From the NCBI RefSeq assembly GCF_950295315.1, contig NC_080170.1, forward strand, positions 99,738,632-99,802,631: 64,000 nucleotides of DNA, given 5' to 3'. Both the position numbers and the translations under genes were made by a program. Shown here one piece after another: positions 2,630-63,897 of the stretch. Position 1 is the first letter of the stretch; each line of letters begins with the position of its first letter. The notes below the pieces were generated by a model. The model searched no databases and was not told the DNA's origin. It saw nothing but the letters and a program-made list of their open reading frames with translations. The stretch is from Erinaceus europaeus. Lineage: Eukaryota > Chordata > Mammalia > Eulipotyphla > Erinaceidae.

Positions 2630-3690
2630 ATAGTCCACAGCCACATGAAACAAATACTCAACACTTCTTTTTATAAGGGAATGCAAATTAAGACCATAAT
2701 GAGATATTACCTCACATGTGCAAGAATGGCTGATATCATAAAGGGCTAGAAACAAGTATTGAAGAGGCTACAGAACAAATAAAAATGAACTGGTATGAAC
2801 TGATGGTAGGAGTGTAATATGGTTCAGCTTCTTTGGAAAGTGATGTGGAATTTTATTTTTTAAAAGCTAGAAAATGCAAATGTATATTTGCCTCCAGGTT
2901 TATCACTAGGGCTCAGTGCCTGCATTATGAATCCACTGCTCCTGGAGGCCATTTTTCCCATTTTTTTGCCCTTGTAGTTATTGTTGTTATAGCGGTTGTT
3001 ACTGTTGGATAGGACACAGATACATCAAGAGAGGAGGGGAATACAGAGAGGAGGAGAGAAAGACACCTGCAGACCTGCTTCATCACTTGCGAAGTAACCC
3101 ACTTGCAGATTGGGAGCTGGGGGCTTGAACCAGGATCCTTAAGGCAGCCCTTGCGTTTTATGCCATGTGAGCTTAACCCACTGCAGTAATTCCCAGCATC
3201 CCCCAAAGTGCATATGTTATATGATCTTGTAATGACATTCCTTGGTATTTAACCAAAGAACATGAAATACTAACTCAAAAGCACATATGTACCTCTTTGT
3301 TTATTTTGACATTATTAACAGTAATAAAAAATATGGACTCAAATGTTCATCAATGACTGAGTGGATAAAGTTGCAGTGGCATGTATAATCACTGAGATAC
3401 TACACAGCACTTAAATACTGCCCTGGTGTCAACATGAAGACTTTGACGTGTTCATACTATGTGAAATAAGTCAGAATGACAATTAACAAATTATTTTACT
3501 CTTAGGCAGAATAAAAGTAACCAAAGCAAATGAACTGAAAATAGAGCTCAGGTTCTGTGAATAATTGTGTGGTTGTCAGGGAGAAGAGCATGAGAAGACT
3601 GAACAGATAGTATGATGACGGCACACACTTAGGTGATAGGTGTGTGAAGCTATGTACTTGAATTTAGATAGCTTCTATAACCAATGAGAA
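2630..3690 (+). mobile_element. Old L1, ORF2 3' part and 3' UTR, split by a SINE
   Basis: The sense strand reads in L1 ORF2 order. It has AATGCAAATTAAGACCATAA, ATGAGATATTACCTCACA, then after the SINE ATGGACTCAAATGTTCATCA and GTGAAATAAGTCAGA. These follow the conserved 3' end of mammalian L1 ORF2. A group A SINE (2890-3203) interrupts it. Divergence is heavy and no frame survives. It is older than the type A and B L1 ends nearby. Confidence 0.8.
2890..3203 (-). mobile_element. Group A SINE inside old L1
   Basis: Read on the minus strand it has the tRNA-like head with GGTTCAAGCC, the CT-rich part, the CAACAA-type spacer and the GCCTCCAGGAGCAG block. The flanks AAATGCAAATGTATAT and AAAGTGCATATGTTATAT look like a decayed target duplication, so the insertion is old. 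Confidence 0.85.
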
Positions 3691-3874: not shown

Positions 3875-3891
3875 TTTAAAAGTCCCACTTT

Positions 3892-4181
3892 GGGAGTCAG
3901 GTGGTAGCACAGCGGGTTAAGTGCACGTGGCGCAAAGTGCAAGGATTGGCATAAGGATCCTGGTTCGAGCCCCCGGGGCCCCACCTGCAGGGGAGTCTCT
4001 TTACTGGCGGTGAAGTAGGTCTGCAGGTGTCTATCTTTCTCTCCCCCTCTCTGTCTTCCCCTCCTTTCTCCATTTCTCTCTGTCCTGTCTAACAACGATG
4101 GCATCAATAATAACAACAATAATAACTACAACAACAATAAAAAACAACAAGGGCAACAAAAGGGGAAATAAATAAATATTT
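3892..4181 (+). mobile_element. Group A SINE, complete, with target duplication
   Basis: The full element has box A-like TAGCACAGCGGGTTAAG and box B GGTTCGAGCCC, then the CT-rich body, CAATAATAACTACAACAAC and a TAAATAAATATT tail. A perfect 17-bp duplication (TTTAAAAGTCCCACTTT) flanks it at 3875-3891 and 4182-4198, which marks a fairly recent L1-type insertion. The head resembles a tRNA but has been co-opted as an internal Pol III promoter; it is not a tRNA gene. Confidence 0.95.
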
Positions 4182-4214: not shown

Positions 4215-4800
4215 CATATACCATGTTGCTACCATGATTCCATCCTGACTTCTACGGGCAGACAACCCAGAGAAGTGTGTCCTGGAACCTCTCTTCTCCA
4301 GAGCTCTACCTGACTAAAGAAAGATAGAAACAGGCTGGGGGTATGGGTTAACTTGCCAACACCAAATACCAGCAGAGAAGCAATTATAGAAGCCGGAACT
4401 CCTACTTTCTGCTCCCCAAAACCAAATTTTATCCATACTCCCAGTGGGGGGAAGGTGATAGGTGGAAAAGGATAAGAGGGCTCTGAACACCAGCTCCATC
4501 AGGACCCTCAGAGAGAATAGGAAAAAAGGAGGAGCACTTAGATGTAGTAATAGAGTCATAAGTGACTTGGAGGGGAAGAGAGGACTGAACCTGGAAGAAA
4601 AAGAGGGAAATTATGTACAAATCTAGACAGATAATTGTAGAGATGATAGTTAACCTATGGCTGCAACCTTGGGAGAACTGCAGCGGTTTGCAATAGAGAG
4701 ATTAAGGATTCAGAACTCTGGTGTGGGAACAGTGTGGAATTATACTCCTGTTGACATGTAATTTTGTAAATCAGTATTAAATAACTCATAAAAATAAAAA
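4215..4800 (+). mobile_element. L1 3' UTR, type A relative
   Basis: It contains GCTGGGGGTATGGGTTAACT, CAGAGAAGCAATTATAGAAG and ATCCATACTCCCAG, all shared with other type A 3' ends here (7355, 55170). It ends in an A-rich TAAAAATAAAA tail. A middle section at about 4450-4700 is not shared with the others, so this is a separate subfamily. Confidence 0.65.
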
Positions 4801-5006: not shown

Positions 5007-5346
5007 GGGATCGGGCGGTAGCTCAGCAGGTTAAGCACATAAGGCTCAAAGCACAAGGACCAGCTTAAGGATCCGGGTTGGAGGCCCCCAGACTCCCCAC
5101 CTGCAGGGGGTCGCTTCACAAGTGGTGAAGCAGGTCTGCAGGTGTCTGTCTTTCTCTTCCACTCTTCTCTCAATTTCTCTTTGTCCTATCCAACAACAAT
5201 GACATCAATAACAACAATAATAATAGCCACAACAGTGGTAAAACAAGGGCAACAAAAAGGAAAAAAGTAGCCTCCAGGAGCAGTGTATTCATGGTGCAGG
5301 CACCAAGCCCCAGCAATAACCCTGGAGGCAATAATAATAATATAAT
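5007..5346 (+). mobile_element. Group A SINE with 3' extension
   Basis: The tRNA-like head (GGCGGTAGCTCAGCAGGTTA), CT body, CAACAATGACATC spacer, GCCTCCAGGAGCAG block and ATAATAATA tail are all present. Similar flanks (AATAATGTGAGTA and AATAATATGAGTA) look like the target duplication. Confidence 0.9.
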
Positions 5347-7348: not shown

Positions 7349-7354
7349 CGAATA

Positions 7355-8098
7355 TTCCATTGCTATTTGTTTTTTTATAAAATGGAAGTATTGACAAAAC
7401 CATAGGATAAAAGGGGTACAATTCCATATAATTCCTACCACCAGAACTCCCTATTTAATCCTCTCCCTGGAAAGCTTTCCTGTTCTTTGTCCCTCTGGGA
7501 GTGTGGACTGAGGGTCATTATAGGGTGCAGAAGGTGGAGTTCTGGCTTCTGTAATTGCTTCCCCACTGAACATGGGCATTATCAGATTGATCCATACTCC
7601 CAGCCTGTCTCTCTCTTTCCCCAGTGGGACAGGGATCTGGGAAGGTGGGGATCCAGGACACCATGGTGGGGACATCTGCCCAGAGAAGTCAGGCTGGCAT
7701 CATGATAGCATCTAGAACCTGGTGGCTGAAAAAGAGTTAAGATATAAAGCAGAGTGGTCCGGGAGGTGGCGCAGTGATAAAGCTTTGGTCTCTCAAGCAT
7801 GAGGTCCCAAGTTCGATCCCTGGCAGCACATGTGCCAGAGTGATGTCTGGTTTCTTTCTCTCTCCTCCTATCTTTCTCAAAAATAAATAAAATCTTAAAA
7901 AAAAAAGATATAAGGCAGAACAAGTTGTTGACTAATCATGAACCTAAAGGCAAGAATATTGTAGATGAAGATTTGGGTTTCTCCATGTTGGAAAAAGCTA
8001 ATAGGTCTATTTTATTCCAAGGGGCCATGACCTTACTAGTTGTTGTCTGAGCTTGCTATTTTAATGGTAATGTGTCCTGCTGTCAAGTATATAAGAAA
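7355..8098 (-). mobile_element. L1 3' end, type A, split by a SINE
   Basis: It starts with TTATAAAATGGAAGTATTG and CATAGGATAAAAGGGGTAC, then CTCTGGGAGTGTGGAC, ATCCATACTCCCAGCC and GAACCTGGTGGCTGAAAAAG. After the SINE it resumes with GTTGTTGACTAATCATGAAC. It is one of the longest type A 3' UTR copies in the window. A group C SINE sits inside it. Confidence 0.75.
7754..7904 (+). mobile_element. Group C SINE, young, nested in L1 3' UTR
   Basis: A complete copy: TCCGGGAGGTGGCGCAGTG, box B-like AGTTCGATCCC, CCAGAGTGATGTCTGG and the AAATAAATAAAATC tail. A 15-bp target duplication (AAGATATAAAGCAGA at 7739-7753, AAGATATAAGGCAGA at 7905-7919) has one mismatch, so it is younger than the L1 that hosts it. 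Confidence 0.93.
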
Positions 8099-19604: not shown

Positions 19605-19614
19605 ATTGATGTAT
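19605..19614. repeat. Target-site duplication, left, of full-length Vingi
   Basis: ATTGATGTAT here is repeated exactly at 22709-22718. The pair encloses the inverted and direct halves together, so both halves came in as one insertion. Confidence 0.9.
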
Positions 19615-20389
19615 CACTGAACAGACGCCAGTTTGCTTTCCGAAAGTTCCATCTTAGTTTCTCCGAGCACAGAATCAGTGGGAGCTGGAGACCAATGTGG
19701 ATGATAGCTGGGCGGTGATGACTGTGCGGGAAGATCTTGAGAACTTGTCTCGTAGCAGGAAAGGCTTGGCCGTTGACTGTGCTAATCCAGCACAAGTCGG
19801 GTGACGAGTCTTTATTCCATCTAGCACTGTGAAAAGAGCCTGGCTGTTTGGGATCGTATAATAGGGAGAGGTCATTCGCTGAAGCCCAGTCGGCTAAGAC
19901 AGAGCCATCAGCATGAGTGGAGGAATATCCCCAGTCTTGGTGATGACTATTAAAGTCTCCAACGTAAACGGCTGGGTGATTCGGGCTAGGCAGGACCTCA
20001 TTATCCCATGAAGCACTGGGAGGCTTATATATGTTGACGAGCTGAATAGTTCCAATAGTAATGGAGTCGTAGAAGGTCGAAGAGGCCATATGGTAAATGT
20101 CCGCAAGATACAATTTAGCGTAGATGGCTCGGCCGTGTTTAGGATGGAGATTATAGCATATTAAATCGAATCCACTGATGGTGAATCGAGCAGCTTCATC
20201 GACTGCTATATGTGTTTCTTGTAGGCAGATAACATCTGCCTGATGCTGTATCGCCAATTGACCAATAAGAACGCATTTGGCAAAGGACAGCCCCTCAACA
20301 TTAAGTTGGAGGACTCGAAGAGCAGGACCAACAGCTTGAAAGCTGTCAGGAGCTGCTTGTTGCTGACTTTGAAAGTGACTGGGATCCAT
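19615..20389 (-). pseudogene. Vingi endonuclease domain, detached by inversion
   Basis: The frame opens at the ATG at 20389 and gives about 258 element residues before running into flank (the frame itself ends at 19592). It is an exonuclease/endonuclease/phosphatase-fold (APE-like) nuclease that nicks target DNA to start reverse transcription. Key residues visible: N30 in LQLNVEG, E58 in CLQETH, D145 and N147 in VGDFNSHH, D198 in SPDLCW and H225 in SHHRP. The last motif is normally S-D-H, so residue 224 (H for D) may be a damaging change. There is no stop or frameshift in the domain. The start is the same ATG used by both short Vingi copies, about 90 bases from the element's 5' end. The protein can no longer be made joined to its RT, which lies on the opposite strand. 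Confidence 0.92.
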
Positions 20390-20478
20390 GTGGATTCAGT
20401 CGGCTAGGAAGGATCGTCAGTTTCCCCAATGAATGGGTACTCACGGGATGCACCACAGGAAGGTCGATCCAATGCATC
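20390..20478 (-). promoter_or_regulatory. Vingi 5' UTR, likely internal promoter region
   Basis: About 89 bases between the element's 5' terminus (20478) and the ATG. The same block heads both short Vingi copies, so it is the part kept under selection for transcription or mobilisation. An internal promoter is inferred by analogy with other non-LTR elements. I recognise no specific promoter motif. Confidence 0.6.
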
Positions 20479-22695
20479 TGTTCAGTGATCTTACCAACAA
20501 ATCTATTCCTGTAATTCCAATTAACTTTATCCCCTCTGAAGAGTCCTACAGGCGCTTCCACCAAGCCATCTTCAAAGCAGCTTCCCAAGCTATTCCTCGT
20601 GGGAGACGTGCTAACTATACGCCTTGTCTTGATGCTGAATGCGAGCAACTACTAAAGCAGTATGATGAGTCTGGCGACCCAGATGTGGCCAACCATCTCA
20701 TTGCCTCCCTGGATGCAGGACGCCAAGCCTGCTGGCAACAACTTACGGAAAGTCTGAACTTCACCCACTCAAGTAGGAAGGCTTGGAAGCTTCTTCATAG
20801 TCTGGGTGCCGGTAGCCAACCCTCTCCCGTCTCCCATCCTCCCGTATCTCCAAACTCAGTGGCCAGTCACCTAACTCAAGTTGGACGTGCTAACATCAAC
20901 CCAGTCTGGAAAAGAGAAATTTCCCATGAGTGATCATCCCACTTCCGTTTATCTTGTCCATTTCCAAAACTCTCTCCCTTTACACTGTGTGAACTGGAAG
21001 ACGATTTGAAGAGGGTTAAACCGTGAACGGCTGCTGGCTATGATAACATCACCCCAGAACTCATTCTTAACTTGGGCCCCGTGGCAAAGAAGTGGCTCAC
21101 TACATTCCTGTCCCACATCTTGGAATCTGAATCTATGCCCAAAATTTGGCGTCATGCGAAGATAATAGCAGTTTTGAAACCAAAGAAAGACCCAACACTG
21201 GCCGCCAGCTATAGAACAATTTCTCTCCTCTCCGTGTGTTACAAACTCCTTGAGAGGCTGTTTCTGTCACGTATTTCTCCTCTTAGAGAGAAATTCCTAT
21301 CACCCGCCCAAGCTGGTTTCCGCCCAGGAAGATCTACCTGCGAACAAGCCCTGGCCCTCTCAACTTACATTGAAAATGGATTCCAGAAGAATTTAAAGAC
21401 GGGTACTGTCCCTGTTGATCTCACAGCAGCCTATGACATGGTATGGCACCAAGGTCTCCTAGTCAAGATCTCAAGATGCCTGTGTCCATGGGTGTCCAAT
21501 ACTATATCGTTTCTTCTCCAAAACAGAAGATTCCGGGTGCATCTGGGTGACAAGTCTAGCAGATGGAGACTTGTCTTAAGTGGCCTCCCCCAGGGCTCTG
21601 TTCTGGCTCCTACGCTATTTAATATTTACATCAATGACCTTCCAGAAACTTCTTCAAGGAAGTTCATCTACGCCGATGACATCTGCTGTGCAACTCAGGC
21701 ATTCAAGTTTGACATCCTCGAGGAAACACTCACAAAAGACATTGTCTCTGATATCTGATTACTGTAAAAAATAGCAACTAATCCCTAGCACTGCAAAAAC
21801 GGTATCATCTGTTTTCCATCTACACTATGCCTCGGCCTCACGTGAGCTTAATGTGCAGCTTGACGATACGAGAATCCGGCATGAAGCCCAGCCAGTCTAT
21901 CTTGGCATTACTCTCGATCGCACCCTGTCATTTCACGAACATCTCATAAAAACTGCAGCAAAGGTGGGCGCGAGGAATAACATCATTGCAAGACTGGCCA
22001 GCTCCTCATGGGGCGCGAGCGCTTCCACACTACAATCATCATCTCTGGCATTATGCTATTCCACTGCAGAATACTGTGCCCCAGTATGGTTCCGTATCCC
22101 CCATGTCCACTTGGTCGATTGCAAATTATACTCCTCCATGAGGATAATTTCTGGAACCATCCATTCCACCCCGGTTCCATGGCTGCCAGTTCTTAGCAAC
22201 ATCGCCCCGCCAGATATTCGTCGGGATGCAGCATCATCTAAGTTCATTTCCCACATCTACGCTCGACCGGACCTGCCAATATACGCGTATATCTTCGCCC
22301 ACCCTGTCCAACGCTTGACGTCTCATCATCCAATCTGGTCTCCTACGCCTACACTAAACTTCTCTGTTCCAGACTCTTGGAAACAGAGTTGGCAGTCAGC
22401 TGAGGTAAAGAACAAACACCTCTTCACAGACCCCTGCAAGCGTCAAGCCAGCTTTGACCTAGCACGTTATGATTGGGCCCTCCTCAATCGCTATCGAACA
22501 GGCCTTGGCCGGTGCGCTGCTATGTTCCATCACTGGGGAGCCAGAGATGACCCAAACTGCCCCTGCGGCTACAGACAGACTATGACCCACATAGTCAACG
22601 ACTGCCACCTCTCCAGATTCAAAGGAGGTCTCGAAACTTTACATCAGGCTCAACCTGACGCTGTTGACTGGCTATGGAAGAAGGGCAAACGCTAG
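20478..22695 (+). pseudogene. Vingi linker, reverse transcriptase and C-terminal zinc-finger region, broken
   Basis: Three open blocks belong to one former frame: to 20933, 21072-21758 and 21853-22695. The RT block has SYRTISLL, AGFRPGRST, DLTAAYD (motif A), GLPQGSVLAP (motif B) and FIYADDI (motif C, catalytic D-D). It copies element RNA into DNA at the nicked target. The last block has the thumb-like region (LGITLDRTLSFHEHL) and a C-terminal CPCG...H...C motif near residues 236-251 of that block, probably nucleic-acid binding. No RNase H follows, as expected for Vingi. Defects: TGA at 20931 (a former Trp codon), TGA at 21024, a one-step frameshift within about 21741-21752 and TAG at 21772 (a former Trp codon). 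The final stop TAG is at 22693-22695 and merges directly into the GAA tail. Confidence 0.93.
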
Positions 22696-22708
22696 AAGAA
22701 GAAGAAGA
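22696..22708 (+). repeat. Vingi 3' tail, (GAA)n
   Basis: AAGAAGAAGAAGAA begins at the last base of the stop codon, so the element has essentially no 3' UTR. The same tail ends both short copies. The microsatellite tail differs from the poly-A of L1 and the local SINEs. Confidence 0.9.
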
Positions 22709-22718
22709 ATTGATGTAT
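22709..22718. repeat. Target-site duplication, right, of full-length Vingi
   Basis: ATTGATGTAT, identical to 19605-19614. L1 type B sequence resumes straight after it. Confidence 0.9.
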
Positions 22719-22876
22719 GAGTATAAATTCATTATGTACTAAGACCCCACAGTTCTCTTCTACCTCTCCCTCATCCACTTTCCCCCAAGTCCTTTTTTTT
22801 TTGATGCAATCCACCATGCCCAGTCCACGTTTCATTGTGTCTACTCCCTTCCTGTTCCTATTTGTCAAGCCTCACT

Positions 22877-23067
22877 TCTTCTAGCGTTTGCCCTTCTTCT
22901 GTAGCCAGTCAACAGGTCAGGTTGAAAGCTGTCAGGAGCTGCTTGTTGCTGGCTTTGAAAGTGACTGGGATCCATGTGGATTCAGTCGGCTAGGAAGGAT
23001 CGTCAGTTTCCCCAATGAATGGGTACTCATGGGATGCACCATGAGAAGGTCGATCCAATGCATCCCA
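22877..23067 (-). mobile_element. Non-autonomous Vingi derivative, 191 bp
   Basis: It joins about the first 145 bases of Vingi (5' UTR plus 18 codons) to its last 35-45 bases. Exact 11-bp target duplications (CAAGCCTCACT) lie at 22866-22876 and 23068-23078. One base is missing in the 3' part relative to the full-length element, which shifts the fused frame. Like the full-length copy it has CAATGAATGGGTA in the 5' UTR. The tail is short (AGAAG). Confidence 0.93.
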
Positions 23068-23272: not shown

Positions 23273-23605
23273 TCTTATTTATTTAAAATGGAAATATTGA
23301 CAAGAACACCACCAGAACTCCATATACCATCCTCTCCATTGGAAGCTTTCCTATTCTTTACCCCTCTGGGAGCATGGACCCAGAATCATTATGGAGTGCA
23401 GAGGGTGGAAAGTCTGGCTTATGTAATTGCTTCTCTGCTGAATATGGGTGTTGGTGGGTCAATCCATACTCCCAGCCTGTTTCTATCTGTCCCTAATGAG
23501 GCAGGGCTCTGGAGAGGTTGGGTTCCAGAACACATTGGTGAGGTCGTCTGATCAGGGAAATCAGGTTGGCGTCATGGTGGCAGTTGCAGCAGAGGATGAA
23601 TGAGG
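23273..23605 (-). mobile_element. L1 3' end, type A
   Basis: TTATTTAAAATGGAAATATT, CACCACCAGAACTCCATATA, CTCTGGGAGCATGGACCC and AATCCATACTCCCAGCC are reversed type A. It abuts the type B L1 and probably inserted at its edge. An internal gap removes the GGATAAGAGGGGTAC part. Confidence 0.75.
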
Positions 23606-26900: not shown

Positions 26901-27181
26901 TGGGAGTCGGGCGGCAGCACAGCGGGTTAAGGGCACTTGGTGCAAGGACTGGCATAAGGATCCCGCTTTGAGCCTCTGGTTCCCCACCTGCAGGGGGGTC
27001 ACTTCACAAGTGGTGAAGCAAGTCTGCAGGTGTCTCTCTCTCCCCTCTTCTCCCCCTTCTCTCTCCATTTCTCTTTGACATATCTAACAAAGACAACATC
27101 AGTAACAACAACAATAATAACTACAACACTGAAAAACAACAAGGGCACAAAAGGAAAAAATAAATATATATATATATATAA
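26901..27181 (+). mobile_element. Group A SINE, complete
   Basis: GGGAGTCGGGCGGCAGCACA, GGATCCCGCTTTGAGCC, CCCCACCTGCAGGGGGGTC, a CT body and a CAACAACAATAATAAC spacer, ending in an ATATAT tail. The duplication ACTTTTAAC is at 26891-26899 and 27182-27190. Confidence 0.92.
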
Positions 27182-27195
27182 ACTTTTAACTGAAG

Positions 27196-30430: not shown

Positions 30431-30740
30431 AGGGGATCAGATGGCAGTGGGTTAAGCACACATGGCGTGAAGGGCAAGGACTGGTATAAGGATCTGGATT
30501 CAGCCCGCGGCTCACCACCTGCAGGGGCGTCGCTTCACAGGTGGTGAAGCAGGTCTTCAAGTGTCTTTCTCTCCCCCTCTCTGTCTTTCTGTCCTCTCTT
30601 GATTTCTCTCTGTCCTATCCAACAACAATGATAAACAAGAAGGGTACCAAAAGGGGAAAAAAATAGCCTCCAGGAGCAGTGGATTGGCACCAAGCCCCAG
30701 CAGTAACCCTGAAGACAAAAAAAAAAAAAAAAAAAAAAGG
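30431..30740 (+). mobile_element. Group A SINE with 3' extension
   Basis: GGATCAGATGGCAGTGGGTT (with a small head deletion), GGATCTGGATTCAGCC, GTGAAGCAGGTCTTCAAGTG, CCAACAACAATGATAAAC, GCCTCCAGGAGCAGTGGATT and a long A-tail. AATTAAATAGG and GGTTAAATAAAAGG flank it. Confidence 0.88.
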
Positions 30741-32201: not shown

Positions 32202-32427
32202 GCATGCAGGGAGATCACTTCACAAGCAGTGAAGCAGGTCTGCAAGTGTCCTCCTGTGTCTCCTCCTCTCTGTCTCCCTTTGCCCCTCTCAACTTCTCTT
32301 TATGCTATCCAGTAAAAATGATAATAAAAAAGCCAATAATAAAAAAAGCCTCTCGGGGCAGTGGATTCATAGTTGCAGACACAGAGCCCCAGTGATAACC
32401 TTGAAGGCAAAAAGTAAATAAATAATT
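32202..32427 (+). mobile_element. Group A SINE, 5'-truncated
   Basis: It starts inside the element at GCAGGGAGATCACTTCACA. GAAGCAGGTCTGCAAGTGTC, GGGGCAGTGGATTCATAG and CCCCAGTGATAACCTTGAAG follow. The tRNA-like head is absent. Confidence 0.8.
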
Positions 32428-36986: not shown

Positions 36987-37360
36987 GGGGGCTGGGCGGT
37001 AGCCCAGTGGGTTAAGCTCACATGGTGGGCATGAAAGCACAAGGCTTAAGAATCCTGGTTCCAGTCCCTGGCTCCCCACCTGCAGGGGGTTCGCTTCCAA
37101 GCAGTGAGGCAGGTCTGCAGGTGTCTATTTTTCTCTCCCCCTCTCTGTCTTCCCTTCCTCTCTCGATTTCTCTCTGTCCTATCCAACAACAACAAAGGCA
37201 ATGAAAACAACAAGAGCAACAACGAGGAAAACAAAATGGGAAAAATAGCCTCCAGGAGCAGTGGATTCATGGCGCAGGTACCAAGTCCCAGAAATAATCC
37301 TTGAAGTGAAAGAAAGAAAGAAAGAAAGAAAGGAAGGAAGAATGGAAGAAGGGAAGAAAG
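36987..37360 (+). mobile_element. Group A SINE with 3' extension, young
   Basis: GGGCTGGGCGGTAGCCCAGT, CCCCACCTGCAGGGGGTTC, a CT body, CCAACAACAACAAAGGC, GCCTCCAGGAGCAGTGGATT and a GAAA/GGAA-rich tail. A perfect 16-bp duplication (AGAAATAATATTTCTG) lies at 36971-36986 and 37361-37376. Confidence 0.95.
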
Positions 37361-38245: not shown

Positions 38246-38595
38246 GGGTGTCGGGCGGTGGTGCAGTGGGTTAAGCGTATGTGGCGCAAAGCGCAAGGAC
38301 TGGATTAAGGATCCCGGTTTGAACCCTGGCTCCCCACCTGCAGGGGAGTCCCTTCACAGGCGGTGGAGAAGGTCTGCAGGTGTCTATCTTTCTCTCCCCT
38401 TCTCTGTATTCCCCTTCTCTCTGCATTTGTCTCTGTCCCATCCAACAACGAACGACATCAACAATGGCAATAATAATAACCACAACAAGGCAACAACAAC
38501 AAGGGCAACAAAAAGGGGGAAAAAATGGCCTCCAGGAGCTGTGGATTCATGATGCAGGCACGGAGCCCAGCAATAACCCTGGAGGAAAAAAAAAA
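38246..38595 (+). mobile_element. Group A SINE with 3' extension, young
   Basis: GGGTGTCGGGCGGTGGTGCA, GCGCAAAGCGCAAGGACTG, GGTTTGAACCCTGG, CCAACAACGAACGACATC and GCCTCCAGGAGCTGTGG. The duplication GTCCTGATTT is at 38236-38245 and 38596-38605. It retains several CpGs. Confidence 0.95.
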
Positions 38596-42440: not shown

Positions 42441-42712
42441 CATTAAATTTTTTAAAAATATTTATTTATTCCCTTTTGTTGTCCTTGTTGTTTTATTATT
42501 ATAGTTATTATTGTTGTTGGTTAGTACAGAGAGAAATGGAGAGAGAAGGGGAAGACAGAGAGGGGGAGAGAAAGACACCTGCAGACCTGCTTCACCTCTT
42601 GCAAAGTGACTCCCTGCAAGTAGGAAGCCAGAGACTCAAACCGGGATCTTTTTGCTGGTCCTTGCACTTTGCGCCGCCTGCGCTTAACCCTCTCCACTAC
42701 CGCCCTACTCCC
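42441..42712 (-). mobile_element. Group A SINE, complete, without 3' extension
   Basis: The reversed element reads TTATTTATTCCCTTTTGTTG, AGAGAAAGACACCTGCAGAC, CTCAAACCGGGATC and GCGCCGCCTGCGCTTAACCC. The 12-bp duplication TCTGTAGCTCTT is at 42429-42440 and 42713-42724. Confidence 0.95.
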
Positions 42713-42799
42713 TCTGTAGCTCTTTTTAATAAGGCTATGTTACAAAGAAAATTATTTTTTCTTTATTGGGCAGTCAAGGTGTTTTCTATCATTTTATGA

Positions 42800-43241: not shown

Positions 43242-43603
43242 CTTTCTTTTTTTTTTTTAATTTTATCATGTATTTATTTATTTTGCCTCCAGGGTTATCA
43301 CTGTGGCTTGGTGCCTGCACTATGAATCCACTACTCCTGGAGGCCATTTTTTCCATTTTGTTGTAGCGCTTGTTGTAGTTGTCATAGCTGTTGTTGTTGG
43401 ACAGGACAGAGAGAAATTGAGAGAGGACCGGAAGACAGAGAGGGGGAGAGAAAGACACCTGCAGACCTGCTTCACCACTTGCGAAGCGACCCTCTGCAGG
43501 TGGGGAGCTGAGAGCTCTAACCAGGATCCTGCCACCAGCCCTGCACTTTGCATCATGTGCTCTTAACCCGCTGAGCTACTGCCCAGCCCCACCCTCACCC
43601 CCA
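43242..43603 (-). mobile_element. Group A SINE with 3' extension
   Basis: The reversed copy has GCCTCCAGGGTTATCACTGT, CCATTTTGTTGTAGCG, GAGAGAAAGACACCTGCAGA, CTCTAACCAGGATCC and ACCCGCTGAGCTACTGCCC. GTTTTCTTTT and GTTTTCTTTA flank it. Confidence 0.9.
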
Positions 43604-47463: not shown

Positions 47464-47481
47464 CAGTTTTGTTTTGTTTTC

Positions 47482-47768
47482 AATTTTTTATACTTCTTTA
47501 TTTATTTTCCCTTTTGTTGCCCTTGTTTTTTATCGTTGTTGTAGTTATTGTTGTTGATGTCATCATTGTTAGATAGGACACAGAGAAATGGAAAGAGGAG
47601 GGTAAGACAGAGAGGGGGAGAGAAAGATAGACACCTGCAGACCTGCTTCACTGCTTGTGAAGGGACTCCTCTGCAGGTGGAGAGCCGGGGGCTCGAACCC
47701 GGATTCTTACACCGGTCCTAGAGCTTCGCGCCACATGCACTTAACCCACTGTGCTACCGCTGGACTCC
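47482..47768 (-). mobile_element. Group A SINE without 3' extension
   Basis: Reversed: TTTATTTTCCCTTTTGTTGC, GTTGTTGATGTCATCATTG, GATAGACACCTGCAGACCTG, GGGGGCTCGAACCCGGATTC and GCGCCACATGCACTTAACCC. CAGTTTTG sequences at 47464 and 47769 suggest the duplication. Confidence 0.93.
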
Positions 47769-47784
47769 CAGTTTTGCTTTCTTT

Positions 47785-48929
47785 TATGTTTGTTCTTCTA
47801 TTTTTCTATATCCATCCTCCCCAGTTTCAATGGTAGAGTTTGTATAGCATCTACCAGCTGAATTAATGAATGCTGTCAAGTGGTAAACGACTGGCAGGAC
47901 CGAGAAGAAATGACAGCAATGGCACCTCTGTAAGCACAATGTTTTGTGATCAACTCCACAGAATAACTTCAAAGTGATATTTTTCCAAGATAAATATTAT
48001 ATGACACATTGGTTATTTTAAGAAAGATTTGGGTTTGAAGATGTTATAATTCCTTTGTTGGAAATCATATCTTTGAAGCATTAAATTAGTTATATTACTG
48101 AAGTTATCTCTAGAAATATATTAAAATGTTAATTTAAACATCCATTAGAAAAAAATATGTAGCTAAGACATCTGAAAAACTATTAAGCGTCTGGCATGAA
48201 ATAGAAAAAAACAGCTTTTACTCCTTTTTAAAAGAGATTTACATGAAATGCTCAGATTAGTGGTCAACACAGTGTTTTAAACTGTAACCATAAAAAAGGC
48301 ATGTTAGAATTTACTTTCTTGCAAAATGAGAATCCTGTGGCTTAATAAGATGGGAGGATATCACCTATATGTCAACATGACCCAAGCACCAGACAGATTT
48401 TTATAAGACTAGCTATGCACAAACTGTAGGTGCACTGTGTGTGCTAATATATGGTTACTTGTGGCAGATCTTTGAAACAGAGGCAATACTGTATTACTCT
48501 GATGATCTTCACCTCTTCACATAAACTGTCATTTTTATAAAAATCAAATGAAATATCAAAAAGCAGCTCAAAACGTTTCATAGACCTAAGCCTAAATGAA
48601 AAATAAAAATCTATAAACAATAAGAACATATAGATAAATCTAGATGTATTTGCATATGCCAATGACTTTTAGCTATAATATCAAAAGCACGATCCTCAAA
48701 AAGAAAAAAATTATAATCTTCATCTCCCTAAAAATGAAAAATGTTCTCTGCAAAATGTCACTGTCAAGAAAATTAAAAGATGAATCAAAGACTAACAATT
48801 TTTTTCAAAAGATATATATCATATAGGAATGTTATACAAACTAGGGAAGGAAATCTTAAAACTATAACAGATAAAAAACAATCCAACTAAAAAAAACTGA
48901 ACAGAAACCCCACAAATATGCACAGATGT
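47785..48929. other. No gene seen
   Basis: No recognised repeat or exon. Confidence 0.4.
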
Positions 48930-50285: not shown

Positions 50286-50375
50286 AAATAAAAATAATAA
50301 TGAGTTATCAAGCTGTGAAAAGATCTAGAATAAATTTAAATGCTCCTATTAAGTGAAAAAAAAAGTGTGAATAGG

Positions 50376-50628
50376 GAGTTGGGTGGTAGTGCAGCGGGTT
50401 AAGTGCAGGTGGTGCACAAAGACCGACATAAGGATCTCAGTTCAAGCTCCCAGCTCCCCACCTGCAGGGGTGTCCCTTCACAGGCAGTGAAGCAGGTCTA
50501 CAGGTGTCTGTCTTTTTCTCCTCCTTTCTGTCTTCCCCTCTGCTCTCCATTTCTCTCTGTCCTGTCTAAGAATGTCGACATCAATAACAACAATAATAAT
50601 AACTACAACAATAAAAAATAAATGAAAC
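50376..50628 (+). mobile_element. Group A SINE without 3' extension
   Basis: GGGAGTTGGGTGGTAGTGCA, GCGGGTTAAGTGCAGG, AGTTCAAGCTCCCAGC, a CT body, GTCGACATCAATAACAACAA and an AATAAAAAATAAAT tail. Confidence 0.9.
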
Positions 50629-50649: not shown

Positions 50650-51057
50650 AGAGAGAAAAACCAATCTTCTTGAAAGAAAGTAGCCCTGAATGAGTCTGCC
50701 ACCCCAAGATAGCTGATATCAGCCTGCCTGCACTACCACTGGGAAGGGCCTCACCATACCCCCTAAAATCAGCCAGAAGGCCACAGAACCAGACTTGGGT
50801 CCTGGTACAGATTCCACAACTTTTTGGCAAGTAGCAGTCCCAACTCACCCACATTGTATGCTTATGTGTAAGTTCAGGGAAACCAGATGCTTCACTGCAC
50901 CAGAGTGAGTGAGTGGGGTCTCCAACTCCCTGCACAGCTAGTGGGGTCTCTACCTCCTCAGGGATGGGATACAGCGTTCTGGTGGTGAGAACTGTGTGGA
51001 GTTGCACCCCTTTTATCCTATGGTTTTGTCAGTGTTTCCTTTTTATAAATAAAATTT
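50650..51057 (+). mobile_element. L1 3' UTR, type A
   Basis: The end is certain: GTGGAGTTGCACCCCTTTTA, CCTATGGTTTTGTCAGTG, TTTCCTTTTTATAAATAAAA. The part before it (50650-50950), with CACTACCACTGGGAAGGGCC and ACTTGGGTCCTGGTACAG, is not shared with other copies here. It may be upstream L1 sequence or other DNA. Confidence 0.65.
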
Positions 51058-51077
51058 AAAAATAAAGAAAAGAGTGC

Positions 51078-51081
<4 letters not shown>

Positions 51082-51111
<30 letters not shown>

Positions 51112-51146
51112 GAGAGAGAGAGAAAGAGAGAGAGAGGAGAGAGAGT
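51082..51146 (+). repeat. Compound (AC)n(GA)n microsatellite
   Basis: A CA/AC run passes through AGTG into a GA run at about 51111. Confidence 0.95.
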
Positions 51147-51207
51147 CCACTCCAAGTCAGATTTCTCCTATAAAATAATTCACAAACTTAGTGTTAGTGA
51201 ATTCAGA

Positions 51208-51245
51208 AAACAAAAGGAAGAAGAAGAAAGAGGAGGAGGAGGAGG

Positions 51246-51278
<33 letters not shown>

Positions 51279-51286
51279 AGAAGAAG

Positions 51287-51318
<32 letters not shown>

Positions 51319-51406
51319 GAAGAAGAAGAAGAAGAAGAAGAAGAAGAAGAAGAAGAAGAAGAAGAAGAAGAAGAAGAAGAAGAAGAAGAAGAAGAAGAAG
51401 AAGAAA
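51208..51406 (+). repeat. Long (GAA)n tract
   Basis: Nearly 200 bases of pure purine on the plus strand. GAA units run from about 51245 to 51404, broken only by a GGA cluster at the left and one GTA at about 51317. Pure GAA/TTC tracts of this length can form triplex (H-DNA) structures. Confidence 0.97.
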
Positions 51407-51429
51407 GAGCAGTGAAAGGAAAAAAAAAT

Positions 51430-52197
51430 TTTTTAATTAGCTAGGAGAGAAAAATGAGGGTGGAGGGAGGAGGGAGAGAGAAACAAGTTCCTCCCACAAT
51501 GGATAGGACACCCAGTCACCTAACAATGGAAAAAGCAACAACAGTTAATTTTGGTCAACCTGAAGAGGAGGGAGATGGGACACATGTATATAATAATAGT
51601 AATAATAAATAAAATAGAGTAAAAAACCCTAACAGTCAGTCTATAGCTTGGACCACACCAGATTGGCTGCATGCAGCTGGTCCCCTTCCTAAACCAAGCA
51701 AAGACATCCAATTAAAAGAAATATAAAAAAACAAAAAATCCTCCAGCTATTCTTTCCCATGCAGGGCTGAGGCCCTGATTGGTCAGTTATTCTGTCACTC
51801 AAACAGAGCTCCAGCCCCCTTCATAAAGAAAAGAAAAAGCAAAAGGCTTGGAATGACACCCCTGCTGAGCCAGGAATCTTTGTAAAGAAAATAGCTCTAC
51901 AGGAAGCCTGCTAGGAGTGGCCAGCCTGTGAGGGCTAGTTCTGGGGTTGGGGAGTAAGGTCAGTTCAGAAATAGTAAAGCCAAAGATTTTCCTTTCTTTC
52001 TCCTTTTGATCTCTGTCTGCCAGCCCAAGAGTGAGTTATAGGACTCTTTTTTGGTGTCACCCTGAAGTCCCCTTATTCAACCTTTCAGGGACGTGCCAGA
52101 TATAATACCCTCTCCAGAGAATCCCAGGTTGTAAGCTGCTTCTTTCTGGAGCTCACACCAGGTGTTGTCTCCAAATTGCCATCTTGGCTCTGCCTCA
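51430..52197 (-). mobile_element. L1 5' end, probable
   Basis: At the right edge the reversed strand begins CCTGAGGCAGAGCCAAGATG. GCCAAGATGGC is the hallmark of many mammalian L1 5' termini. The next several hundred bases (reading leftwards) are relatively GC-rich, with CCCTGCATGGGAAAGAATAG and TGTGGTCCAAGCTATAG. How far left the 5' UTR extends is unclear. Confidence 0.5.
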
Positions 52198-55169: not shown

Positions 55170-55590
55170 CTTTAGGTTTATGATTAGCCAACAACTTATT
55201 TGGCTTTATATGTTAACTCTCTTTTCAGCCACCAGGGTCCAGATGCTAGCATGATGCCAACCAGACTTTCCTGGACAGAGGACCCACCAATGTGTCCTGG
55301 ATCTCTGATTCCCCAGAACCCTGCCCCTCTAGGGAAAGAGAGAGGCAGGCTGGCAGTATGGATCGACCTGTCAATGCCCATGTTCATCGGGGAAGCAATT
55401 ACAGAAGCCAGACCTTCCACCTTCTGCACCCTACAATGACCTTGGGTCCATACTCCCAGAGGGATAAAGAATAGGAAAGCTATTAAGGGAGGGGATGGGA
55501 TACGGAGTTCTGATGGTGGGAATTGTGTGGAGTTGCACCCCTCTTATCCTATGGTTTTGTCAGTGTTTCCTTTTTATAAATGAAAAAAAA
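55170..55590 (+). mobile_element. L1 3' UTR, type A, well preserved
   Basis: TTAGGTTTATGATTAGCCAA, CCAGATGCTAGCATGATGCC, CCTGTCAATGCCCATGTTCA, AGCAATTACAGAAGCCAGAC, GTGGAGTTGCACCCCTCTTA and CCTATGGTTTTGTCAGTG, then an A-tail. It is the clearest plus-strand type A copy and the sense counterpart of 7355-8098. Confidence 0.82.
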
Positions 55591-55837
55591 TGTAAAGGAA
55601 AATAATATATGAAAGACTGAGAACTTATTGCATAGAATCCAATTGCCTTCCAAATAGGATGGTTTATTCTGAGCACTGTTCTGAATACTTATCTTCTTTT
55701 TACTTGGTTTCTCAATTCAAAATTAACTTCATGAGATAAAAAAAACTACATATATGAAAGTATTTTCCTTTTAACTATTATTTCTCCATACCTAGACTAT
55801 TGATGTCAAATTCAAATGTTTGAATAAAATGATAAAG

Positions 55838-58961: not shown

Positions 58962-59157
58962 TCTTCTTCTTCTTCTAGCGTTTGCCCTTCTTCCATAGCC
59001 AGTCAACAGCTTCAGGTTGAAAGCTGTCAGCAGCTGCTTGTTGCTGGCTTTGAAAGTGACTGGGATCCATGTGGATTCAGTCGGCTAGGAAGGATCGTCA
59101 GTTTCCCCAATGGGTACTCACGGGATGCACCACGAGAAGGTCGATCCAATGCATCCC
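58962..59157 (-). mobile_element. Non-autonomous Vingi derivative, 196 bp, intact
   Basis: Same structure as 22877-23067: Vingi 5' UTR and first 18 codons joined to its last 13 codons and a GAA tail (TTC repeats at 58962-58974). The join lies at a short shared TCAA. Exact 11-bp target duplications flank it. The 5' terminus is complete (TGGGATGCATTGG). It lacks four bases (GAAT) that the other two Vingi copies have in the 5' UTR. Confidence 0.95.
58975..59070 (-). CDS. 31-codon fused frame of the short Vingi
   Basis: The frame begins at the Vingi ATG (59070) and ends at the Vingi stop (58975). The 5' 18 codons (MDPSHFQSQQQ...) and the last 13 (...VDWLWKKGKR) are joined in the original frame, so the deletion removed whole codons. 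It holds neither endonuclease nor RT residues. Whether it is translated or useful is unknown. It may just be a by-product of how the family arose. It is broken by a one-base loss in the 22877 copy. Confidence 0.6.
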   Translation of the reverse strand: MDPSHFQSQQQAAADSFQPEAVDWLWKKGKR

Positions 59158-60880: not shown

Positions 60881-61565
60881 CACAAAACAAATATATTTGA
60901 AAAAGAAAATATTCAAAAAGAATATTTACTTGTTCTACTTTTTCTTACTAGCTCTGATATCAAATATGTATCTAGACAGAATATTTTTCACTTCTACTAA
61001 CAGCTACTAGTCTGCTCCTCGAGAACTATCCCTTCCTGTTTATTTTTGAATAACTATAAGAACTCTTGTAATCTCTTCGCTTCCATCCTTCATCATTTTA
61101 AACTGTCATTTGTCTATAGTTTATAATGTTAGCAATGTTATATCACTCTATTTTCTAAAAACCCCTCTAAGACATTCTCCTTCAGATAAATTTAAAAGCT
61201 GTTAGTACAAACTATTAATCTTTAATTTGGCAGCTTCCCAACCTTCCCCCTACATCTCTGATGCCATCTGCCAGCTAACACTCTGCCTTGGTTATTGTAT
61301 ATCAGCTGCATTGACCTCGTTGGACATCTTCCATAAATTCCTACCTGTTTTGCATGAAATTCTGTTTGGGAGAAACTCCCTAAATATATTTGTATAATTT
61401 ACTTCTTTACTTATTCTTTCTTCTTTATTCAAATGTTTCCCTAGCAGAGAAATTTTCCTTAAAAACAATATATAATATAGCTGTCATATAATTTTCACTC
61501 TGTCACACTCTATCCTCCCCTAGATGTGATTTTTCATAGTATTTAAGTACAAGTTTTCTATTTAT
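60881..61565. other. No gene seen
   Basis: AT-rich, unclassified. Confidence 0.4.
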
Positions 61566-61884
61566 TTATATATATATTTTTTACCTCCAGGGTTATTGCT
61601 GAGGCTTGGTGCTTGCACCATGAATCCACTGCTCCTGGTGACCATTTTTTCCCTTTTTTGTTGCCTTTGTTGTTTTGTCGTGGTTGTGGTTATTATTGTT
61701 GTTGGATAGGACAGAGGAAGAAGACAGAGAGGGAGAGAGAAAGATAGATACCTGCAGACCTGTTTCACGCTTGTGAAGTGACCCCACTCAGGTGGGGACC
61801 CGGGGGTTCGAACCGGGATCCTTAAGCCAGTCCTAGCACTTCGCGCCATGTGCACTTAACCCGTTGTGCTACCACCAGATCCCC
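61566..61884 (-). mobile_element. Group A SINE with 3' extension
   Basis: Reversed: TACCTCCAGGGTTATTGCTG, ATGAATCCACTGCTCCTGG, GATAGATACCTGCAGACCTG, GGGGGTTCGAACCGGGATCC and GCGCCATGTGCACTTAACCC. Box B is perfect (GGTTCGAACCC on the element strand). Confidence 0.93.
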
Positions 61885-63448: not shown

Positions 63449-63459
63449 AGCATTTATTT

Positions 63460-63753
63460 ATTTTTATTTTTTTTAAATATTTATTTTATTTATTTATTCC
63501 CTTTTGTTGCCCTTGTTGTTTTATTGTTGTAGTTATTATTGTTGTTGTCATTGTTGGATAGGACAGAGAGAAATGGAGAGAGGAGGGGAAGACAGAGAGG
63601 AGGAGAGAAAGATAGACACCTGCAGACCTGCTTCACCGCCTGTGAAGCGACTCCCCTGCCGGTGGGGAGCCGGGGTTCGAACCTGGATCCTTATGCCGGT
63701 CCTTGTGCTTTGCGCCACCTGCGCTTAACCCGCTGCGCTACAGCCCGACTCCT
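63460..63753 (-). mobile_element. Group A SINE, young, nested in a group D SINE
   Basis: A nearly consensus-like reversed copy: TTCCCTTTTGTTGCCCTTGT, GATAGACACCTGCAGACCTG, GGGGTTCGAACCTGGATCC, GCGCCACCTGCGCTTAACCC and GCTGCGCTACAGCCCGACTC. It retains many CpGs. The duplication AGCATTTATTT is at 63449-63459 and 63754-63764. Confidence 0.95.
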
Positions 63754-63765
63754 AGCATTTATTTT

Positions 63766-63897
63766 TAATGAGAGAGAGAAAGTGAATTAGTGACTGGAGC
63801 ACAACGTCTCTCTGACATATGCAATGCCAGGGATCAAGGCTGGGAACTCACGCATGCAAGTCTTATGCTCTACTGTTTAGCAACCTGCCCATCCCAG
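63766..63897 (-). mobile_element. Group D-type SINE
   Basis: AATGAGAGAGAGAAAGTGAA, GGAGCACAACGTCTCTCTGA, CAATGCCAGGGATCAAGGC and TATGCTCTACTGTTTAGCAA form a reversed tRNA-like SINE whose tail took the group A insertion. Confidence 0.55.

What the first reader, a model, noticed from the sequence alone, without database searches (positions are those of the whole stretch)
19605..22718. A practically complete Vingi retrotransposon whose 5' quarter is inverted
Endonuclease (minus, 19615-20389) and RT (plus, 20478-22695) look like two divergent genes, but exact 10-bp duplications enclose both. The endonuclease breaks off at the point where the RT part begins, and the 5' UTR lies at the inversion joint. 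That is the geometry of twin priming. It is well known for L1. I am not aware of it being described for Vingi. The unusual part is that nothing is lost: both the 5' terminus (minus three bases) and the interior survive.
Basis: partly seen in the sequence, partly recalled or inferred. Interest (0 to 1): 0.85.

Follow-up and report, generated by a model that had tools for sequence, protein, structure and literature searches.

The report
Retrotransposon copy with inverted front end
A jumping element landed here in one event but its front quarter went in backwards, a known accident of this copying process that is mostly documented for the L1 element and here affects a different element type.

Summary
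One 10-bp duplication (ATTGATGTAT, 19605-19614 and 22709-22718) encloses two blocks of one non-LTR retrotransposon: 5' UTR plus endonuclease on minus (19613-20478), RT part and (AAG)n tail on plus (20477-22708). Placed separately on relatives, both blocks hit 71 of 72, RT part directly after endonuclease. The join is an overlap: 13 nt stand in both blocks. Two-bp microhomologies lie at the left junction and at the inversion joint. The terminal 3 nt are missing. Best explanation: a single twin-primed insertion.

The focal joint is unique there (2 or fewer mismatches), so this copy did not multiply as such. Three further, independent 5'-inverted copies were found, each inside its own 10-12 bp duplication and with 2-bp microhomology at the left junction. 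Among 29 copies chosen by their 3' end alone, 2 are inverted, 2 full length, 25 truncated. Twin priming thus recurs in this family. Retention of everything is not general: the three others lost an internal or a 5' part.

Twin priming is standard for L1; one non-L1 case (Nimb-2_DR) is in print. I found no Vingi case in the library searched; the founding papers are not held. The Vingi name rests partly on recall; the species was not identified.

The parts
19605..19614 (+). left target-site duplication ATTGATGTAT; its last two bases (AT) are also element sequence (microhomology)
   Evidence: sequence
19613..20478 (-). inverted 5' block: 5' UTR, start codon at 20389-20387, endonuclease frame of 258 codons without a stop
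20332..20478 (-). 5' end of the element (147 nt shared with two short copies); terminal 3 nt (TGG) absent
19613..19625 (-). overlap copy 1: TCTGTTCAGTGAT at the interior end of the inverted block
20477..20489 (+). overlap copy 2: TCTGTTCAGTGAT at the start of the forward block; its first two bases TC are shared with the 5' end (joint microhomology)
20477..22708 (+). forward block: linker, RT domain (frame 21027-21755), C-terminal part, stop at 22693-22695; broken by three stops and one frameshift
22696..22708 (+). short (AAG)n tail at the 3' end
   Evidence: sequence
22709..22718 (+). right target-site duplication ATTGATGTAT

Best explanation
A single retrotransposition event of a Vingi-type LINE with twin priming. 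The bottom strand was nicked and the RNA reverse transcribed from its 3' tail up to about position 855 (shown: forward block; inferred: polarity). The top strand, nicked 10 nt away and ending in ...ATTGATGTAT-3', primed a second cDNA inside the RNA near the place where the first cDNA stopped (inferred from the AT microhomology and the overlap). That cDNA ran to within 3 nt of the RNA's 5' end, and the two cDNA ends were joined through TC (inferred). The first cDNA overshot the second priming site by about 10 nt, hence a short duplication instead of a loss. The copy is dead: its halves face apart and the RT half is broken.
For: Duplication as long as those of two other copies in the window (10-11 bp). 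Colinear coverage: both blocks match 71 of the 72 relatives of 940 aa or more among the 120 proteins listed; the one without an endonuclease match is P0054. RT start overlaps endonuclease end by 3 residues in 38, 5 in 1, 7 in 21, 8 in 11. Equal divergence: focal endonuclease/RT identity ratio 0.965, five relatives 0.936-0.982, against 40 of the 67 others. Microhomology of 2 bp at both new joints. Recurrence: L011 (duplication of up to 12 bp, AGAAAAGAAAAC), L049 (up to 12, AACCATTATGTT) and L037 (up to 12, GGTAAAGTTAGA) are inverted copies with other joints. Left-junction microhomologies AC, TT, GA and joint microhomologies AA, A, TAT are read by eye from the printed sequences. The L1 pattern agrees: about 70% of 5'-inverted L1 show 2-5 bp at the 5' junction (PMC2912911, passages); joints often carry small insertions, deletions or duplications (PMC5668948, passages); most have TSDs of 10-20 bp (PMC4245944, passages).
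Against: The 10-nt overhang pairs with the RNA at the inferred priming site at only 4 of 10 positions; 26% of all positions do as well or better, and a 2-nt terminal match occurs at 6.8% of positions, so the priming step is weakly supported at this locus. A passage describes twin-primed L1 as containing an internal deletion (PMC2837659), which this copy lacks. Reads were not seen.
Confidence: 0.92

Rival explanations
1. Dual priming: the second cDNA was made on a different RNA molecule of the same family.
For: Gives the same geometry; proposed as a speculative variant for L1 (PMC2837659, passages).
Against: Two unrelated stopping points on a roughly 3.08-kb RNA would lie within 13 nt of each other in about 27 of 3,080 cases (own arithmetic). 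L037 has an 18-nt overlap too. L011 and L049, which have internal losses, give no such argument. The focal blocks are equally diverged.
Confidence: 0.04
2. An ordinary full-length insertion whose 5' quarter was later inverted by two chromosomal breaks.
For: Inversion alone gives opposite orientations inside one duplication.
Against: One break would have to fall exactly at the duplication/element boundary. The missing 3 nt are not left beside the left duplication, the overlap needs a staggered break, and the same geometry recurs at three other loci.
Confidence: 0.02
3. Two separate insertions, endonuclease fragment and RT fragment.
For: They look like two divergent genes.
Against: The endonuclease block has no 3' end or tail, which target-primed reverse transcription requires; one duplication surrounds both; the blocks meet at one point of the ORF.
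Confidence: 0.005
4. Assembly artefact at 20478.
For: Reads were not available.
Against: A misjoin would not be expected to leave matching duplications at the far ends and microhomology at both joints; three more loci share the geometry.
Confidence: 0.015

Closest known systems
Twin-primed (5'-inverted) human L1
   Same: Inverted 5' part and forward 3' part inside one duplication; short microhomologies; duplication of at least 10 bp; small overlaps or losses at the joint. 639 of 2,068 human- and chimpanzee-specific L1 insertions with 5-30 bp duplications in PMC2912911 (passages), 298 of 1,634 in PMC5668948 (passages).
   Different: Another LINE clade; (AAG)n tail instead of poly(A); in the small sample here 2 of 29 copies are inverted, fewer than for L1.
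5'-inverted Nimb-2_DR insert in DT40 cells (PMC4245944, passages)
   Same: 5' inversion by a LINE outside L1; duplications peak around 12 bp.
   Different: One cell-culture event of a zebrafish element; its joint is not described in the passages seen.
Vingi-1_EE and Vingi-1_AAl of hedgehogs (recalled; founding paper not held)
   Same: By recall: a single ORF with endonuclease and RT, no RNase H, and internally deleted derivatives.
   Different: Not compared by sequence here.

Membership tests
twin-primed LINE insertion | one target-site duplication around both blocks | tested here: met
   10 bp exact
twin-primed LINE insertion | 5' part inverted, 3' part forward, from one colinear element | tested here: met
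   71 of 72 relatives; divergence ratio; ordinary forward copies in the genome, e.g. L010, L062
twin-primed LINE insertion | microhomology at the left junction and at the inversion joint | tested here: met
   2 bp each; short, so weak at one locus
twin-primed LINE insertion | overhang complementary to the RNA at the internal priming site | tested here: inconclusive
   4 of 10 matches, reached or exceeded at 26% of positions
twin-primed LINE insertion | both cDNAs from one RNA molecule | tested here: inconclusive
   overlap and equal divergence favour it
Vingi clade | AP-type endonuclease plus RT in one ORF of about 1,000 aa | tested here: met
   PF14529, PF03372, PF00078 in the pieces; long relatives of 948-1093 aa, 71 of 72 with an endonuclease match
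Vingi clade | no RNase H domain (definition recalled) | tested here: met
   306-aa C-terminal frame has no Pfam match up to E 0.1. Of the 120 listed relatives one, P0054, carries PF17917, by recall an RNase H-like RT domain; it has no endonuclease match
Vingi clade | RT falls in the Vingi clade of a tree with named references | not tested
   no named Vingi or Ingi reference was fetched
Vingi clade | nearly identical to Repbase Vingi-1_EE | not testable with these tools
   Repbase not available; closest protein P0001 is 92% identical over 76% of the RT block and unnamed

The most novel reading that the evidence does not exclude
Vingi elements twin-prime as a regular route in their host, the second cDNA often running to or near the RNA's 5' end (focal, L049 and nearly L011) and the first able to displace the second primer (overlaps of 13 and 18 nt), so that complete elements can be split into two facing halves without loss. 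A LINE with duplications of about 10 nt or more, not L1 alone, would then be prone to 5' inversion in a suitable host.
Probability: 0.5. Interest if true: 0.5.

Novelty: new member of a known kind. Interest (0 to 1): 0.4.

Why it matters
In cell assays 5' inversion was seen with human L1 in human cells and otherwise once, with Nimb-2_DR; overhangs of about 5 nt were suggested to be too short, while inverted L1 mostly have 10-20 bp duplications (PMC4245944, passages). Four natural copies of another LINE with duplications of 10-12 bp fit that idea. In annotation such copies can pass as two divergent genes.

Tried and rejected
Descent of an already inverted copy: considered because a query across the focal joint also matched C1 across it. 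Rejected: the C1 copy (L011) keeps element bases that the focal copy lacks at the joint and the reverse, and it has another left end and another duplication. The focal joint with up to 2 mismatches occurs twice in the genome, at the focal copy and in L010, which is an ordinary forward copy. A hotspot for the joint near position 850 was not claimed: L011 was found by a query that favours such joints. Duplication lengths: with one crude script 9 of 25 forward copies (one, L057, wrongly anchored) show an exact repeat of 10 or more nt, against 3 of 3 other inverted copies; suggestive only. Different age of the blocks: 0 disruptions in 258 endonuclease codons, three stops and one frameshift in about 737 RT codons; too few to tell, and the divergence ratio does not support it. 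No result: 5' 18-mer in viral contigs (records near the window's genome may be left out there), Rfam at gathering threshold, NCBIfam above cut-off. PMC13295347 and PMC12026660 have no occurrence of 'inversion' or 'inverted'. PMC4476161 (passages) reports that LINEs of the L2 and RTE clades form U6 chimeras only by template switching, which speaks against a fully general twin priming.

Full report
What is there. Between 19605 and 22718 lies one broken non-LTR retrotransposon in two blocks of opposite orientation inside one 10-bp duplication, ATTGATGTAT. The left block is read on minus: 5' UTR, start codon at 20389-20387, 258 open codons with endonuclease matches PF14529 (E 2.2e-12) and PF03372 (E 1e-9). 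The right block is read on plus: a linker, RT (PF00078, E 3.3e-29), a C-terminal frame without a Pfam match, a stop at 22693-22695 and an (AAG)n tail ending at 22708, where the right duplication begins.

More than chance? Random pairs of 25-nt stretches of the window share 10 or more identical bases in 17 of 20,000 draws, draws under 100 bases apart being skipped. Here the repeat sits at both outer ends of the element. Two short copies in the window have duplications of 10-11 bp.

Halves of one element. I searched with the forward block alone: 680 proteins at E 1e-10 or better among the 7,990 candidates scored, a capped set; 120 are listed. Of the 120, 72 have 940 aa or more (948-1093). Placed separately on these 72, both blocks matched 71, endonuclease at the N-terminus and RT part directly after it; P0054 lacks the endonuclease match. 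The overlap is 3 residues in 38, 5 in one, 7 in 21 and 8 in 11. In the four relatives of the 7-8 type that I looked at, the RT alignment begins 13-17 residues in, so the start is extrapolated; I infer that these relatives are a few residues shorter there. Because the search used only the RT block, the endonuclease placement is independent. Mean identity to 40 of the 67 other relatives is 0.477 (endonuclease) and 0.494 (RT), ratio 0.965; the five relatives compared give 0.936-0.982.

The joint and the 5' terminus. TCTGTTCAGTGAT stands at the interior end of the inverted block and again at the start of the forward block. Two of its bases (AT) may belong to the duplication and two (TC) to the 5' terminus, so 9-13 nt are duplicated. 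Two short copies, minus strand 22876-23066 and 58962-59157, join the same 5' 147 nt to the same 3' end (52 and 59 nt aligned) and begin GGGATGC or TGGGATGC. L049 shows a complete TGGGATGC. The focal end begins GATGC, three bases short.

The genome. It answered at the tenth request: 2,720,570,532 bases in 1,172 contigs, unnamed. A query across the focal joint (20400-20900) gave 40 scored hits: the focal copy and one on C1 cross the joint, the other 38 begin at it, at query 75-78. The joint pattern with up to 2 mismatches occurs at the focal copy and in L010, an ordinary forward copy. So the inverted form did not spread.

Other inverted copies. L011 (C1): 5' positions 3-218 inverted, forward from about 840, so 219-839 are lost; duplication AGAAAAGAAAAC. 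L049 (C2): 5' positions 1-122 inverted with the complete 5' end, then RT block 1594 to the end; duplication AACCATTATGTT. L037 (C90): RT-block 567-751 inverted, then 734 to the end, an 18-nt overlap with the 5' part missing; duplication GGTAAAGTTAGA. Part of the 12-bp repeats may belong to the tail, so 10-12 bp. Left-junction microhomologies are AC, TT, GA, and joint ones AA, A, TAT, read by eye from the printed sequences. The joints all differ, so these are independent events.

How often? From the 3'-end query (40 scored hits including the focal copy) I examined 29 others: 20 as 6-kb stretches (L043-L062) and nine as the loci returned (L034-L042), two of these completed with L063 and L064. 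Two are inverted (L049, L037), two full length (L062, L038 with L064), 25 forward and truncated. The sample favours copies similar to the focal 3' end and is small. For L1 the share is 639 of 2,068 (PMC2912911) or 298 of 1,634 (PMC5668948).

Mechanism. Twin priming predicts what is seen: inverted block at the left duplication, cDNA ends meeting at the joint, short microhomologies at both new joints, one duplication. The overlap means that the first cDNA ran about 10 nt past the second priming site, and two unrelated stopping points would lie so close in about 27 of 3,080 cases (own arithmetic). The weak spot is the overhang, which pairs with the RNA at only 4 of 10 positions.

Known ground. 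About 70% of 5'-inverted L1 have 2-5 bp microhomology at the 5' junction (PMC2912911, passages). Small duplications at L1 joints are usual and no joint fell in the first 590 bp (PMC5668948, passages); here the joint is at about 855-870. Outside L1 I found one case in print, a Nimb-2_DR insert (PMC4245944, passages). Seven paper searches were made: Vingi (20 papers, all listed); twin priming with inversion and non-LTR (40 of 45 listed); hedgehog LINEs (19); clade names (25 of 851 listed); L2 clade (2); BovB, Nimb, Ingi, ZfL2, RTE (30 of 188 listed); twin priming with hedgehog (2). None of the 20 Vingi papers is among the 40 listed. I saw passages of 11 papers, no hits in a twelfth, and listings of the rest. 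The founding Vingi and twin-priming papers are not held. 'Not described' is a statement about this library only.

What the name rests on. Endonuclease plus RT in one ORF and no RNase H match in the C-terminal frame fit Vingi as I recall its definition; of 120 listed relatives P0054 carries PF17917, by recall an RNase H-like domain. No tree with named sequences was made and the host was not identified. PMC12026660 (passage) lists 4,476 'I-Jockey' copies in the African hedgehog; that Vingi is filed there is recall.

Verdict. Real and correctly read: one twin-primed, nearly complete Vingi-type insertion, one of at least four independent 5'-inverted copies in this genome. After the genome answered I raised the confidence (0.88 to 0.92), the novel case (0.3 to 0.5) and the interest (0.33 to 0.4).

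Noticed in passing
22876-23066 and 58962-59157, minus strand: Two short internally deleted copies (5' 147 nt joined to 52-59 nt of the 3' end) with the same deletion joint and their own duplications ((A)GTGAGGCTTG; ATTGGTTCTC(T)): a non-autonomous derivative that was itself mobile. By recall, such Vingi derivatives in hedgehog are already described.
   Followed up: partly
22719-22875: One of these short copies lies only about 157 bp from the focal element.
   Followed up: no
L004:2-651: An inverted RT piece (RT-block 1251-1899, cut by the locus edge) directly abuts the 5' end of a full-length forward 5' part; nested insertion or another complex inversion, not resolved.
   Followed up: no
2887-3185, 3875-4173, 5007-5345, 26901-27182, 30444-30740, 36988-37319, 38251-38594, 42443-42730, 43254-43590, 47473-47787, 50356-50624, 61554-61883, 63457-63767: A dispersed repeat of about 300 bp, roughly 68-84% alike between copies, at no fewer than 13 places in both orientations, with a shorter match at 32205-32425 (top 80 pairs); probably a SINE family.
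   Followed up: no
7352-7750, 55203-55603, 23307-23582, 4227-4449: A second repeat family, about 70-83% alike, in both orientations.
   Followed up: no
51049-51444: Open frame with 62 Glu among its 132 codons (stop included), from a GA-rich simple repeat; not a gene by appearance.
   Followed up: no
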